Below, piece after piece: positions 1,423 through 5,107 of a stretch of 22,135 nt of DNA. Position numbers and translations under genes: made by a program. The stretch comes from a virus. The DNA lies in IMG/VR virus record IMGVR_UViG_3300021142_000200, positions 1-22,135 of that record; one strand, written 5' to 3'. The notes under the pieces are model-generated. The model saw only the letters and a list, made by a program, of their open reading frames with translations, was not told where the DNA came from and did not search any database. How positions within the stretch are numbered: position 1 is the stretch's first letter; every line of letters starts with the position of its first letter.

Positions 1423-1494
1423 ATGAGCAGATCGAAAAGAGTACTCCCCTCCTGCCTTAGTTTCTTTTCTGGGAGTAACGCGGAGCATTTATGA
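1423..1494 (+). CDS. Possible 23-residue leader ORF coupled to the replication gene
   Basis: ATG 1423 opens 23 codons (start MSRSKRVLP, end GSNAEHL). Its TGA overlaps the ATG of the replication gene in an ATGA junction. It contains three CpG dinucleotides, whereas CpG is otherwise almost absent nearby. The 5' leader also folds TACTCCC (1442-1448) onto GGGAGTA (1471-1477) just before the ribosome binding site of the next gene. It could be a translational-coupling leader peptide. It could equally be chance in a structured untranslated region, since its own ribosome binding site is poor. Confidence 0.25.
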   Translation: MSRSKRVLPSCLSFFSGSNAEHL

Positions 1495-2180
1495 GAATAA
1501 AAAATTGGACTAAATTTCAGCATTTTAAGGACAGGAAACCACCCTGGGTCAAACTGTATCGTGACCTTTTGGATGACATAGACTGGCATGAGCTTGATCC
1601 TTTGTCAGCAAAAGTACTCTGTATGCTTTGGCTTATTGCCTCTGAAGATGATGGAAATATTCCTGAGCTAAAAACACTTAGTTTTAGACTTAGACTGCCA
1701 TTAAAGACTACTAAAGATTGCTTATCCAAACTTAATCATTGGTTGATACATGATGATATCAATGTGATATCAAAAGTATATCAACATGATGGTCTAGAGA
1801 CAGAGACAGAGACAGAGATAGAGACAGAGTTAGAGAAAGAGACAGAGGTAAAGACAAAAGCCTCAAGGCTTTCCCCAAACTGGAAATTATCTGAGTCTGA
1901 TTACAATTTTTGCAGATCAGAAAGACCAGACCTTGATCCACAAAAAATAGCTGAATCCTTCAAAGATTACTGGATTTCTAAACCTAAAGATGCAAGTAAA
2001 ACTGACTGGTCAGCAACTTGGAGAAATTGGGTCAGAAGACAGGATATTTCTAAAAACAAGCAAAAATCCTTTTACCAAAGTGATTTAGAAATTAAAAAAG
2101 CTAGACATGATGAAATGGTAGGGAAAACCAAAAGACCAACTATTGACATAACCCCTAATGACATATTGGAGCTGAAATGA
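1491..2180 (+). CDS. Phage replication initiator-like protein with winged-helix N-terminus and DnaT-like C-terminus
   Basis: The product is 229 residues. The N-terminal about 90 residues begin MRIKNWTKFQHFKDRKPPW and resemble the helix-turn-helix domain of phage replisome organiser proteins. Residues 103-122 are an ET-repeat linker encoded by tandem GAGACA-like hexamers. Residues about 127-180 (PNWKLSESDYNFC ... WSATWRNWVRRQ) match the DnaT/primosomal DNA-binding signature common in phage initiators. It probably binds the phage origin and recruits the helicase loader encoded next. A GGAG ribosome binding site lies at 1482-1485. Its stop overlaps the next ATG (ATGA). The closest functional analogue is lambda O; the role is inferred from domain pattern and neighbours. 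Confidence 0.8.
   Translation: MRIKNWTKFQHFKDRKPPWVKLYRDLLDDIDWHELDPLSAKVLCMLWLIASEDDGNIPELKTLSFRLRLPLKTTKDCLSKLNHWLIHDDINVISKVYQHDGLETETETEIETELEKETEVKTKASRLSPNWKLSESDYNFCRSERPDLDPQKIAESFKDYWISKPKDASKTDWSATWRNWVRRQDISKNKQKSFYQSDLEIKKARHDEMVGKTKRPTIDITPNDILELK
1797..1856 (+). repeat. Ten tandem GAGACA-like hexamers within the initiator gene
   Basis: The copies are GAGACA x3, GAGATA, GAGACA, GAGTTA, GAGAAA, GAGACA, GAGGTA and AAGACA, all in frame and encoding alternating Glu-Thr-like dipeptides (one Lys replaces Glu in the last copy). A 7-bp dyad, AAAGCCT-CA-AGGCTTT, follows at once (1857-1872). The repeats encode a flexible acidic linker and might also act as initiator-binding iterons, because lambdoid origins lie inside the initiator gene. 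Simple slippage expansion is the alternative. Confidence 0.8.
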
Positions 2181-2533
2181 GCCTACCTATAGAAGTTATT
2201 AATAAGGTTTTTTTAAGACTTTCCAACACTTATGGATCAAGTTGGGATTCCATGTGGGCATTAAATGACATTCATGAAGTCAAAGAACTTTGGGCTAGTG
2301 AGCTTAATTTTTTTCATGAAAAATGGGATTGTTTTAGATGGGCTTTTGAAAATCTACCTGAAAGACCTCCAAATTTAATTCAATTTAAAAAATTATTGAT
2401 GGAATGTCCAAAATTACGAATTGAAACTCAAGTTTATTTACCACCACCAGATGTTCCACCAATGTCTGATGAAATAAGAGAAAAAATAAATGAACTGCGA
2501 AAAAGTCTAACTGCTCATAAATATCAAAGGTGA
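2177..2533 (+). CDS. Probable helicase-loader-like (P-type) replication protein, short form
   Basis: The product is 118 residues, starting at an ATG that overlaps the initiator stop. The middle section reads WDCFRWAFENLPERPPNLIQF, then KKLLMECP. The arrangement W...A....P.PP....F..L..CP resembles the motif of lambda P-like and DnaT-like helicase loaders, where it is usually PPxxxEFxxLC. The C-terminus (SDEIREKINELRKSL) looks helical. A replication partner of the initiator is likely from this motif and the position. It is about half the length of lambda P, so it may be only the interaction domain. Confidence in the precise role is moderate. Confidence 0.6.
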   Translation: MSLPIEVINKVFLRLSNTYGSSWDSMWALNDIHEVKELWASELNFFHEKWDCFRWAFENLPERPPNLIQFKKLLMECPKLRIETQVYLPPPDVPPMSDEIREKINELRKSLTAHKYQR

Positions 2534-2536
2534 ACT

Positions 2537-3607
2537 ATGAAAACATTAATATCTACTGTTGAACAAGATGAAATTACAAAAGAATGTTCAAAATCTTTTG
2601 ATTTTCAATTTGATGGGTCTACCAAGTTTCAAGTTCCTTTTTTTGAAAAACCTGAAAATTTCCAAATAGGCTTGATTGTAGGGGCATCAGGCAGTGGCAA
2701 ATCTTCTATATTATCTACCATAGGAGAGACTGAGAAAGTGTCTTGGAATCCTAATAAAGCCATTTGTAGCCATTTTGAAAATGCTTTGGATGCTCAGAAC
2801 AAACTTAGTGCTGTTGGACTTAATTCTGTGCCATCTTGGTTAAAGCCATATCATGTGCTTTCTATGGGAGAAAAGTTTAGAGCTGATTTGTCAAGATCAC
2901 TTAAAGACAATGCCATCATTGATGAATTTACTTCTGTTGTAGATAGAAATGTGGCTAAATCTTGTTCTTATGCAATAGCTAGACACATAAGAAAAAATGG
3001 TTTGAAAAACATGGTGTTTGCTTCTTGTCACTATGACATTATTGAGTGGTTACAACCTGATTGGATTTTTGATACAACTACAAGCAGACTTACAGTCGCA
3101 AGGGGGTCAGTTCGGCCAGTTTTGGAATTGGAAATACTTCCTTGCACAACCGAAGCATGGTCAGTCTTTCGCAACCATCACTATATCTCAGGAAACCTTA
3201 ATAAAAGTTCACGATGTTGGATCGCAACATGGGAGGGAACGCTTGTTGGATTTGCCGCAGCTATCACTCTTCCCTCTGGAACTTTAAAAAAAGCATGGAA
3301 AGGTCATAGAACTGTGATACTTCCAGATTTTCAAGGACTTGGTTTTGGTGTCAGAATAAGTGATGCAATTGGACAAATATTTGTAAATGAGGGATGTAGA
3401 TATTTTTCTAAGTCTAGCCATATTAGACTTGGTGAATATAGAAACAATTCACCTTTGTGGAGACCAACAGCTCACAATATGCAAGATAGAAGTAGGCAAT
3501 ATAAAAAATCATTAGAACACAAAACAGACTTTTTTTGGTCTAAAGAAATGACCGAAAGACATGCAGATAGGATTTGTTATTGTCATGAATATATAGGAGC
3601 AATATGA
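2537..3607 (+). CDS. ABC-type ATPase fused to a GNAT acyltransferase; candidate nucleic-acid base-modification enzyme
   Basis: The product is 356 residues. The N-terminal domain (about 40-185) has a full ABC ATPase motif set: Walker A GASGSGKSS at 49-57, signature LSMGEKFR at 108-115, Walker B NAIIDEF at 125-131 with catalytic Glu130, and an H-loop His165 in ASCHYD. The C-terminal domain (about 200-350) is GNAT-like, with the acyl-CoA-binding loop QGLGFG at 266-271 after RTVILPDF, plus a Cys/His-rich tail (CYCH, 347-350). No membrane segments are seen, so it is not a transporter subunit. ATPase-GNAT combinations act on nucleic acids elsewhere: TmcA acetylates tRNA, and Mu Mom is a GNAT-fold DNA modifier. 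A role in modifying phage DNA or host RNA is inferred. A good ribosome binding site AGGTGA precedes the start, and the stop overlaps the next gene. Eight CpGs cluster at the domain junction. Confidence 0.8.
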   Translation: MKTLISTVEQDEITKECSKSFDFQFDGSTKFQVPFFEKPENFQIGLIVGASGSGKSSILSTIGETEKVSWNPNKAICSHFENALDAQNKLSAVGLNSVPSWLKPYHVLSMGEKFRADLSRSLKDNAIIDEFTSVVDRNVAKSCSYAIARHIRKNGLKNMVFASCHYDIIEWLQPDWIFDTTTSRLTVARGSVRPVLELEILPCTTEAWSVFRNHHYISGNLNKSSRCWIATWEGTLVGFAAAITLPSGTLKKAWKGHRTVILPDFQGLGFGVRISDAIGQIFVNEGCRYFSKSSHIRLGEYRNNSPLWRPTAHNMQDRSRQYKKSLEHKTDFFWSKEMTERHADRICYCHEYIGAI

Positions 3608-3906
3608 TTAAAACAATTTGGCAACCAGTTCCATCTTGGGACAATATGGTAAAAGATAGATTAACCACAAAATTCCCTATAGCAGAAAGGTTGCCAAAAT
3701 CAACCAGAAAGTCCAAGGAGCTATCCAAATGTGAAAAGTTAGGTGTATGTAGCCCATCAGAAAAAACTTGTCCAAAATGCCCAAACAAGAAAGCTATTAA
3801 AGTTTCTAAGAGTTTGCCTTTGGTTAATCACTTTCCTAGAATTTACAATAATTTGGGATCAATATATTCAAATGAAATGAGGAAATGGATTATAGAAAAT
3901 GTTTGA
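3604..3906 (+). CDS. Small basic Cys-containing protein, unknown function
   Basis: The product is 100 residues, coupled to the ABC-GNAT gene by an ATGA overlap. The middle has four cysteines in a CEKLGVC ... CPKCPNK arrangement that could bind zinc, flanked by a Lys/Arg-rich stretch (RLPKSTRKSKELSK). The C-terminus has a short conserved-looking element, NEMRKWIIENV. It may bind nucleic acid, and its tight coupling suggests it works with the upstream enzyme, but this is inference. I do not recognise the family. Confidence 0.6.
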   Translation: MIKTIWQPVPSWDNMVKDRLTTKFPIAERLPKSTRKSKELSKCEKLGVCSPSEKTCPKCPNKKAIKVSKSLPLVNHFPRIYNNLGSIYSNEMRKWIIENV

Positions 3907-4087: not shown

Positions 4088-4352
4088 GATTGATAATAAC
4101 CAAAAAGCCATTGTGGAGGCTCTCAGGGCTGTTGGGGCTACTGTTTACCATATAAAAGAGCCTTGTGACCTTTTAGTTGGCTATCATGGTCAGACTTTGC
4201 TTATGGAGGTCAAAAACTTAGACAATTCTTATGGCAAAAAAGGATTTAATGCAAACCAAAAACATTTTGCAGAAAATTGGAAAGGAGGAGCTTTTTGCCT
4301 TGTAGATAGTATTGAATCAGCTCTCAGAATGTTAAACATAATGGTTGATTAA
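4071..4352 (+). CDS. VRR-NUC-like PD-(D/E)XK nuclease
   Basis: The product is 93 residues with the compact PD-(D/E)XK layout. An N-terminal helix (NNQKAIVEALRAVGATVYHI) is followed by catalytic Asp33 in CDLLV, then Glu46-Val-Lys48 in LLMEVKN. A C-terminal helical part follows with an NQKHFAENWKG segment typical of VRR-NUC and Holliday-junction-resolvase-like phage nucleases. It probably cuts or resolves branched DNA in phage recombination, together with NinB and the HNH protein downstream. The catalytic triad is visible; substrate specificity is inferred from the family and context. Confidence 0.8.
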   Translation: MRTASRIDNNQKAIVEALRAVGATVYHIKEPCDLLVGYHGQTLLMEVKNLDNSYGKKGFNANQKHFAENWKGGAFCLVDSIESALRMLNIMVD

Positions 4353-4353
4353 T

Positions 4354-4767
4354 ATGCAATACAAACTTGTTAATCCCCAGCAAGGTTCAGCTCTAATGAA
4401 AACCCTGTGGGCAAAAATGAAAACAGCATTGGAATCAGGGAAAACCCTAGTTCTTAATGTCCAGGAGGAAACCAGGACACATGACCAAAATTCCAAATTT
4501 CATGCAATTATTGCTGACATAGCAAAGCAGGCAGAGCATTATGGAGCTAAGTGGGATGTGGAGAGCTGGAAAAGATTTTTAATAGACCAATTTGCTTCAG
4601 AAACAGGTCTAAGAGCTTCCAAAGTAGCCCCATCATTAGATGGGTATAGGATTGTGCAGTTAGGGCTTCAAAGCCGTGCTTTCACCAAAGACCAAGCCAG
4701 TCAATTTGTGGACTGGTTAGAGGCTTGGTGTGCTCAAAAAGGAATTGAACTTGAAAGCAAACCCTAA
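4354..4767 (+). CDS. ninB: NinB-family recombination protein
   Basis: The product is 137 residues from ATG 4354. A TTG three codons upstream is open and also possible. The sequence has the NinB pattern: KTLVLNVQEETRTHDQNSKFHAIIADIA, the basic ESWKRFLIDQFA segment, and a C-terminal FVDWLEAWCAQKGI helix. NinB (lambda Orf family) is a recombination mediator that binds single-stranded DNA and SSB and helps load recombinase. Length and order (nuclease, NinB, YbcO-like protein) match lambdoid nin-type regions. Identification by motif is fairly strong. Confidence 0.85.
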   Translation: MQYKLVNPQQGSALMKTLWAKMKTALESGKTLVLNVQEETRTHDQNSKFHAIIADIAKQAEHYGAKWDVESWKRFLIDQFASETGLRASKVAPSLDGYRIVQLGLQSRAFTKDQASQFVDWLEAWCAQKGIELESKP

Positions 4768-5107
4768 AAGGCAATATGTTAGAAGTGCCAAACTTTTAAA
4801 CAATATTAGATACCTACACTGCCATGCCTGTGGTGCTGATGACCAAACAATAGTGGGTGCTCACTCCAATAGCTCTGCACATGGAAAGGGCAGGGGAATA
4901 AAAGCTGATGATAATATGGTTGCTGCACTGTGCTGGGACTGCCATCATGCCCTAGACCAAGGACATTATCTAAGCAAAGAGGAAAAGGAACAGTTTTGGA
5001 TGGATGCTCATTTGAGGACTGTATTTAGCCTGATAAAGGCTGACTTGTGGCCGTCTAGTGTGCCACTACCCCAAACCTACCTTGACTACCAAAACAAGCT
5101 AAATTAG
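4730..5107 (+). CDS. YbcO-like HNH-type nuclease (DUF1364 family)
   Basis: The product is 125 residues from ATG 4730, overlapping ninB by 38 bases. TTG 4751, eight bases after AAGGA, would give a more compact product and may be the true start. Residues 31-76 carry the zinc/HNH-like pattern CHAC (31-34), GAHSN with His45, GKGRGIKADD, and CWDCHHALD with Cys68, Cys71 and His72. YbcO of the DLP12 prophage has this AH...GKGIKPDD...CxxCHxxxD core and is a DNase encoded next to ninB. The protein probably cuts DNA during phage recombination. It ends tail to tail with the minus-strand operon. Confidence 0.75.
   Translation: MLKKELNLKANPKRQYVRSAKLLNNIRYLHCHACGADDQTIVGAHSNSSAHGKGRGIKADDNMVAALCWDCHHALDQGHYLSKEEKEQFWMDAHLRTVFSLIKADLWPSSVPLPQTYLDYQNKLN

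What the first reader, a model, noticed from the sequence alone, without database searches (positions are those of the whole stretch)
2537..3607. ABC-ATPase fused to GNAT in a replication operon: candidate phage nucleic-acid modification system
One 356-residue protein carries all ABC ATPase motifs (Walker A 49-57, signature 108-115, Walker B 125-131, His165) and a GNAT acyl-CoA loop (266-271), with no membrane segments. Energy-driven GNATs known to me act on nucleic acid (TmcA on tRNA), and Mu Mom is a GNAT-fold DNA base modifier. Its place between replication and recombination genes, coupled to a Cys-containing small protein, fits a base-modification or anti-restriction role. The substrate and acyl donor are unknown.
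Basis: partly seen in the sequence, partly recalled or inferred. Interest (0 to 1): 0.75.

Follow-up and report, generated by a model that had tools for sequence, protein, structure and literature searches.

The report
Phage ATPase-acetyltransferase, probable DNA modifier
A freshwater phage carries one protein that joins an ATP-burning motor to an acetyltransferase, and because close relatives of the phage carry known DNA-modifying enzymes in exactly the same gene slot, it very probably chemically marks the phage's own DNA to hide it from bacterial defences.

Summary
Observation confirmed: window 2537-3607 (+) encodes an intact 356-aa ABC ATPase (residues 1-195) fused to a GNAT (196-356), motifs where stated. 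By sequence the GNAT domain is neither Mom nor TmcA family. Gene context supports DNA modification strongly. In phages with near-identical flanks, homology stops at or before the start codon and resumes just after the stop codon; the slot holds instead a TET-associated glycosyltransferase or nothing, and sister phages carry C5 or N6/N4 methyltransferases or Mom. 29 of 47 bounded slots hold such genes, versus 1 of 971 genes outside. Mom and ABC-GNAT also exchange positions in Porphyromonas and Arthrobacter phages, and in bacterial genomes a ParB-like gene precedes ABC-GNAT in 55 of 75 loci; some Mom genes have the same partner. The small Cys protein is not a dedicated partner. Best reading: ATP-dependent acylation of phage DNA bases against restriction; base and acyl group unknown. 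Side finding: some lactic-acid-bacteria phages apparently make the fusion by -1 frameshift.

The parts
2537..3607 (+). ABC ATPase-GNAT fusion gene (356 aa); the unit that is exchanged between phages
   Evidence: homology to phages that lack it ends at 2540-2542 (or 2448 in two) and resumes at 3608
2537..3121 (+). ABC ATPase domain, residues 1-195, no coiled coil
   Evidence: model match Z about 14 to solved ABC domains; motifs invariant in 47 relatives
2681..2704 (+). Walker A GASGSGKS, residues 49-56
2858..2881 (+). ABC signature LSMGEKFR, residues 108-115
2909..2929 (+). Walker B with catalytic glutamate NAIIDEF, residues 125-131
3029..3031 (+). H-loop histidine 165
3122..3604 (+). GNAT domain, residues 196-356
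   Evidence: Acetyltransf_1 E 1e-6 for the domain alone; model match Z 13-14 to solved GNATs
3176..3184 (+). HHY motif, residues 214-216; Y216 invariant, the position of the HY motif of Mom in a weak profile alignment
3332..3349 (+). acyl-CoA loop QGLGFG, residues 266-271
1491..2180 (+). replication-protein-like gene (REP), left anchor of the slot
   Evidence: phrog_26426 E 1e-15; used to find the slot in relatives
2177..2533 (+). second replication-like gene (REP2), left border of the slot
   Evidence: phrog_109 P-like helicase loader, weak, E 0.005
3604..3906 (+). 100-aa Cys-containing protein (CYS100), right border of the slot; not specific to ABC-GNAT
   Evidence: no family; follows the glycosyltransferase in L106-L120
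4071..4352 (+). endonuclease-like gene
   Evidence: phrog_93 E 1.2e-6
4345..4767 (+). NinB/Orf recombination mediator
   Evidence: PF05772 E 3.6e-25
4730..5107 (+). HNH endonuclease
   Evidence: phrog_131 E 2.9e-24

Best explanation
The protein is a phage DNA-modification enzyme. Its GNAT domain transfers an acyl group from acyl-CoA to a base of the phage's own DNA, most likely an exocyclic amino group, and its ABC ATPase domain, working as a dimer, uses ATP to engage or distort the duplex so that the base is reachable. The product would protect phage DNA from restriction enzymes. Shown here: both domains with intact predicted catalytic motifs, exchange of this gene with known DNA-modification genes, and the shared ParB-like partner elsewhere in the family. 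Inferred: DNA as substrate, acylation, the use of ATP, and the anti-restriction benefit. Unknown: which base, which acyl group, which sequence motif.
For: (1) Single-gene exchange: against TAGT-bearing relatives the window's homology ends at 2540-2542 (ORF starts 2537) where REP2 is shared, or at 2448 where REP2 diverges, and resumes at 3608 (ORF ends 3607), at about 88-96% flank identity. Alternatives in the slot: TAGT (PF20691, E 8.5e-46), C5 MTase (PF00145), N6/N4 MTase (PF01555), Mom (PF25680, E 3.8e-20). 29 of 47 bounded slots hold one of these or ABC-GNAT, against 1 Mom among 971 genes outside; without ABC-GNAT, 26 in the slot against 1 outside, and an unbiased motif check adds only two ParB-MTase fusions outside. 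In the window's own cluster (REP at least 90% identical): 6 TAGT, 5 ABC-GNAT, 3 empty. (2) Mom and ABC-GNAT exchange in Porphyromonas phages (flanking proteins 83-95% identical) and Arthrobacter phages (nearest flanking proteins 46-78%); a split pair sits at the comparable place in Enterococcus phages. (3) A ParB-like gene lies within 1.1 kb upstream in 55 of 75 genome loci; homologous ParB genes precede Mom in Microbacterium and Arthrobacter phages. (4) ABC-GNAT is directly followed by Mom in L031, L036, L038, L042, L043. (5) Independent published prediction.
Against: No biochemical evidence. The GNAT domain falls with generic GNATs, not Mom or TmcA. The window's copy has no ParB gene beside it. 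A hospitable slot for accessory genes is partly an alternative, since two slots carry a small SAM methyltransferase beside the MTase and one a lone GNAT. The loci are related, so counts are not independent. The slot queries were themselves picked from slot genes.
Confidence: 0.75

Rival explanations
1. It acetylates a host protein (RNA polymerase, a restriction or defence enzyme), as phage phiKMV Rac does, so protection is indirect.
For: The GNAT domain matches generic GNATs, including RimI-like folds. Phage protein-acetylating GNATs are known (PMC7824862).
Against: It alternates with DNA methyltransferases, a DNA glycosyltransferase and Mom at one slot, exchanges with Mom in unrelated phages, and shares the ParB-like partner of some Mom genes and of MTase fusions. 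An ABC ATPase is not needed for protein acetylation.
Confidence: 0.12
2. It acylates RNA, for example a tRNA, in the manner of TmcA, to escape tRNA-targeting defences or tune translation.
For: TmcA is an ATP-dependent GNAT acting on tRNA (general knowledge). ABC domains also act on ribosomes (ABC-F), and ABC-F members appear among the profile matches.
Against: No TmcA helicase domain was found; GNAT_acetyltr_2 matches only 1 of 33 members, E 0.084. Gene context is DNA modification throughout.
Confidence: 0.06
3. It is an accessory exclusion or defence gene in a slot that tolerates any cargo, and its company of DNA-modification genes is incidental.
For: Empty slots exist (L113, L115, L117), and some slots hold genes of other or unknown function, such as a lone GNAT in L127.
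Against: 26 of 34 slot genes of at least 150 aa are DNA-modification genes even without counting ABC-GNAT (another 4), while only 1 DNA-modification gene was labelled outside; parallel exchange with Mom at unrelated loci.
Confidence: 0.07

Closest known systems
Predicted phage GNAT + ABC ATPase DNA-base acyl modification system (Iyer et al. 2013, as restated in PMC7824862; exemplar Tenacibaculum phage pT24)
   Same: Same domain pair; pT24 homologue 41.5% identical over 88% of the query, E 3e-69; same predicted function
   Different: Here a single intact ORF in a small fragmentary phage genome without an adjacent ParB gene; the exchange slot is new evidence as far as could be read (the 2013 paper was not held)
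Mom (PF25680), phage Mu methylcarbamoylase
   Same: GNAT fold, an HY motif in a comparable place, occupies the same exchange slots, in some phages the same ParB-like partner
   Different: Not a Mom by Pfam or profile comparison; carries an ABC ATPase that Mom lacks
TmcA tRNA acetyltransferase
   Same: ATPase joined to a GNAT
   Different: The ATPase is ABC-type, not helicase-type; the GNAT is not GNAT_acetyltr_2; DNA rather than tRNA context
TET-associated glycosyltransferase (PF20691)
   Same: Occupies the same slot in phages with 88-96% identical flanks
   Different: Unrelated enzyme; glycosylates, does not acylate

Membership tests
Phage ABC ATPase-GNAT predicted DNA-modification family | ABC ATPase with Walker A, signature, Walker B and H-loop | tested here: met
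   motifs invariant in 47 relatives; fold match
Phage ABC ATPase-GNAT predicted DNA-modification family | GNAT domain with acyl-CoA loop, fused to or next to the ATPase | tested here: met
   Acetyltransf_1 above cut-off; QGLGFG 266-271; domain matches in 33 of 33 members
Phage ABC ATPase-GNAT predicted DNA-modification family | Homology to the published exemplar (pT24) | tested here: met
   41.5% over 88% of the query, E 3e-69
Phage ABC ATPase-GNAT predicted DNA-modification family | ParB-like gene next to it (common in the family, not universal, so not strictly defining) | tested here: not met
   present in 55 of 75 genome loci but the gene before the window's copy is REP2; the window is a fragment
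Phage ABC ATPase-GNAT predicted DNA-modification family | Acyl-modified base in DNA | not testable with these tools
   needs nucleoside mass spectrometry
Mom (PF25680) | Match to the Mom family profile | tested here: not met
   no hit for P0001 up to E 1; 2 of 33 domains, best E 0.014; hhalign probability 7%
Mom (PF25680) | Gene position equivalent to mom | tested here: met
   Porphyromonas and Arthrobacter exchanges; Mom in the same slot in L136, L141
Mom (PF25680) | Similarity to the solved Mom structure 8bv8 | tested here: inconclusive
   not among the 50 rows listed; the GNAT domain folded alone gave an unusable model
TmcA | GNAT_acetyltr_2 domain with helicase-type ATPase | tested here: not met
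   ATPase is ABC type; GNAT_acetyltr_2 matches 1 of 33 members at E 0.084
ABC transporter | Permease domain or neighbouring permease gene | tested here: not met
   chain is accounted for by two soluble domains; neighbours are replication and recombination genes

The most novel reading that the evidence does not exclude
An ATP-driven acyltransferase that puts a so far undescribed acyl group on DNA bases, a modification chemistry distinct from Mom and from methylation, exchanged between phages as a single-gene cassette, and in phages of lactic acid bacteria produced through a programmed -1 ribosomal frameshift that sets the ratio of free ATPase to ATPase-acyltransferase.
Probability: 0.55. Interest if true: 0.75.

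Novelty: new member of a known kind. Interest (0 to 1): 0.52.

Why it matters
The family was predicted over a decade ago to modify DNA bases with an acyl group, and no experimental report was found in the library searched. The exchange-slot evidence makes the prediction much firmer and gives a clean comparison: nearly identical phages that differ at this slot by this gene, a DNA glycosyltransferase or nothing. Cultured phages with homologues exist (Lactococcus P335, Leptospira LE3/LE4, Gordonia Axumite, Aeromonas PX29, Arthrobacter EastWest against Mom-bearing BarretLemon), so mass spectrometry of virion DNA could settle it. The slot is also a way to find other unknown DNA-modification genes.

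Tried and rejected
Mom membership by Pfam and profile-profile comparison: not met. TmcA membership: not met. The Cys protein as dedicated partner: rejected, because it stays with the glycosyltransferase variant and is lost beside a 96%-identical ABC-GNAT. Folding the GNAT domain alone from a single sequence gave a useless model (pLDDT 37), a wasted job. The structure searches list mostly ABC domains, so the absence of Mom 8bv8 in the rows shown says nothing. Paper searches for COG2401, for ABC-GNAT and for acetylated phage DNA found no experimental paper; Iyer 2013 and Krishnan 2020 are not held. An archaeal COG of the same architecture is recalled from memory only and was not tested, though one archaeal MAG locus turned up (L201).

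Full report
OBSERVATION. Window 2537-3607 (+) is an intact 356-aa ORF. All ABC motifs and the GNAT loop are at the stated residues and the key ones are invariant in 47 relatives. Pfam finds Acetyltransf_1 above cut-off and ABC_tran weakly; PHROGs gives phrog_11143 (unknown function) over the whole chain at E 4e-109. The AlphaFold model (pLDDT 85.8, pTM 0.62) has an ABC domain at 1-195 and a GNAT at 194-356, each with Z about 13-14 to solved structures. The window is itself an IMG/VR virus record of 22,135 bases.

KNOWN FAMILY. tblastn finds 52 INPHARED records, among them Aeromonas PX29 (47%, full length) and Tenacibaculum pT24 (41.5%). [quoted passage not shown] 2013 and naming pT24. The 2013 paper itself could not be read.

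IS IT MOM OR TMCA? Not by sequence. Across 33 GNAT domains, Pfam assigns Acetyltransf_1 to all, Mom to 2 (best E 0.014) and GNAT_acetyltr_2, the TmcA type, to 1 (E 0.084). hhalign against a six-member Mom profile gives 7% probability, though a first run aligned the HHY motif with the HY motif of Mom. The best solved-structure profile matches are ordinary GNATs. A solved Mom exists (8bv8) but was not compared directly.

THE EXCHANGE SLOT. A search with the upstream replication-like gene found 71 viral loci. In these, the place between REP/REP2 and the CYS100, p62, endonuclease-like, NinB and HNH genes holds different genes. Pfam identifies them as TET-associated glycosyltransferase, C5-cytosine methylase, N6/N4 methylase and Mom, besides PAPS-reductase-like genes. 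Nucleotide comparison with phages carrying the glycosyltransferase shows that homology to the window resumes at 3608, one base after the ABC-GNAT stop codon; on the left it ends at 2542 in three phages (L106, L108, L114) and at 2448, within REP2, in L110 and L111. Empty-slot phages (L113, L115, L117) keep homology to 2540 and resume at 3875, lacking CYS100 as well. Of 47 bounded slots, 29 carry one of these DNA-modification genes or ABC-GNAT (9 TAGT, 11 C5, 4 N6/N4, 2 Mom, 4 ABC-GNAT genes), whereas 971 genes outside the slot include one Mom. Leaving ABC-GNAT out, 26 against 1; for genes of at least 150 aa Fisher p is 2e-30, not to be taken literally because the loci are related. A motif check independent of my queries found only two further candidates outside, ParB domains fused to a DPPY methyltransferase. 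In the cluster with REP at least 90% identical to the window's, the slot is TAGT in 6, ABC-GNAT in 5 including the window, and empty in 3; the sister cluster has C5 MTase, N6/N4 MTase, Mom or none. TAGT is regarded as a likely DNA glucosyltransferase in T6-like phages, where it sits at the place of the beta-glucosyltransferase of T4 (PMC13390438), a precedent for exchange at one position.

SAME PATTERN ELSEWHERE. Porphyromonas phages 008a and 015a have tail genes 83-95% identical, followed by ABC-GNAT plus a formyltransferase-like gene in one and by Mom in the other. Arthrobacter phages EastWest and BarretLemon share the flanking genes, including the ParB-like gene (50%) and a DNA-binding gene (78%), with ABC-GNAT in one and Mom in the other. 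Enterococcus 9184 and PMBT2 show ABC plus GNAT or Mom between DNA polymerase and the lysis genes, with a rearranged polymerase end. In bacterial genomes a ParB-like gene lies within 1.1 kb upstream, same strand, in 55 of 75 loci; away from there it is rare, 11 bin counts, all 1-3 kb upstream. Pfam confirms ParB_N in several of these and in the Mom-linked one. Five viral loci have ABC-GNAT directly followed by Mom.

MECHANISM. Most likely the GNAT acylates a DNA base from acyl-CoA while the ABC dimer uses ATP to open or scan duplex DNA; where ParB-like partners exist they may help load or target it. This is inference: domains, motif integrity and exchange are shown; substrate, donor and the use of ATP are not. 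Three relatives have a Formyl_trans_N gene and two a PanD gene just downstream, so the transferred group may differ between lineages.

The Cys-containing small protein overlaps the ABC-GNAT stop by four bases, but it follows the glycosyltransferase too, is absent beside nearly identical ABC-GNAT genes in L008 and L009, and is short and Cys-free in L118.

SIDE FINDING: FRAMESHIFT. In phages of lactic acid bacteria (Streptococcus Javan141, Javan523, MismyG; Lactococcus P335; Oenococcus Vinitor) and in similar viral contigs (L279-L283) the GNAT is in the -1 frame relative to the ABC ORF. In 8 of 10 there is no ATG, GTG or TTG before the GNAT domain, and in all ten the GNAT frame is open for about 150-165 codons at 30-90% pairwise identity, with most differences at third codon positions. 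A U-run (GUUUUU, or U UUU UUU) lies at the shift site, followed 5-8 bases later by a stem in 8 of 10. The stem keeps 84% of cells paired, with four pairs changed on both sides, and beats all slid controls. L283 and L088 lack a clear stem, and L282 has a further frame break in its ABC part. This suggests programmed -1 frameshifting between ATPase and acetyltransferase; I know of no report of it, but no paper search was made for it. A fused homologue in one frame exists close by (L284).

VERDICT. Real, functional-looking gene; DNA modification well supported by context; hypothesis already published; new member of a known but untested kind, with new evidence that makes it testable.

Noticed in passing
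L084:4450-4560, L089:3474-3580, L279:3073-3180, L280:3070-3176, L281:3079-3185, L285:1950-2060, L286:1953-2063: Conserved -1 frame relation between ABC and GNAT ORFs with a U-run slippery site and a covarying downstream stem in phages of lactic acid bacteria; probable programmed ribosomal frameshift.
   Followed up: partly
L086:4619-4621: Tenacibaculum phage pT24, the published exemplar, has an in-frame TGA inside the GNAT domain (codon 254), so its record shows two ORFs.
   Followed up: partly
L085:6044-6661, L092:1805-2452, L094:5002-5475: A Formyl_trans_N gene lies just downstream of ABC-GNAT, with overlapping ends, in three unrelated phages; possible hint at the transferred group.
   Followed up: partly
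L091:4095-4520, L273:7121-7375: An aspartate 1-decarboxylase (PanD) gene follows ABC-GNAT in an actinophage and in a planctomycete contig.
   Followed up: partly
L031, L036:5543-7967, L038, L042:3617-6047, L043: ABC-GNAT directly followed by a Mom gene; in L036 and L042 preceded by a cytidylyltransferase-like gene.
   Followed up: partly
L137:7958-9193, L152:3273-4514: ParB-like domain fused to a DPPY-type DNA methyltransferase, a third kind of DNA-modification enzyme with this partner.
   Followed up: no
L092:1-606, L100:4321-4875, L099:2469-3002, L101:4136-4711: ParB partners of ABC-GNAT end in a similar tail of about 35 residues, while those of Mom end in a stretch with a CPxC motif (by eye); different adaptors on one ParB core.
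   Followed up: no
L102:5519-6349: In Enterococcus phage 9184 the GNAT ORF, annotated as DNA polymerase, is joined to a stretch matching 80 residues (62%) of the related phage's polymerase.
   Followed up: no
L115:2352-3185: A PAPS-reductase-like gene sits between the endonuclease-like gene and NinB in empty-slot relatives; another (L128) sits directly after REP.
   Followed up: no
L005:4250-4549: A 99-aa protein with two CxxC pairs precedes ABC-GNAT with a 4-base overlap, recalling the Com zinc finger before Mom; a somewhat similar small protein precedes a C5 methyltransferase in L149, so it may belong to the replication region.
   Followed up: no
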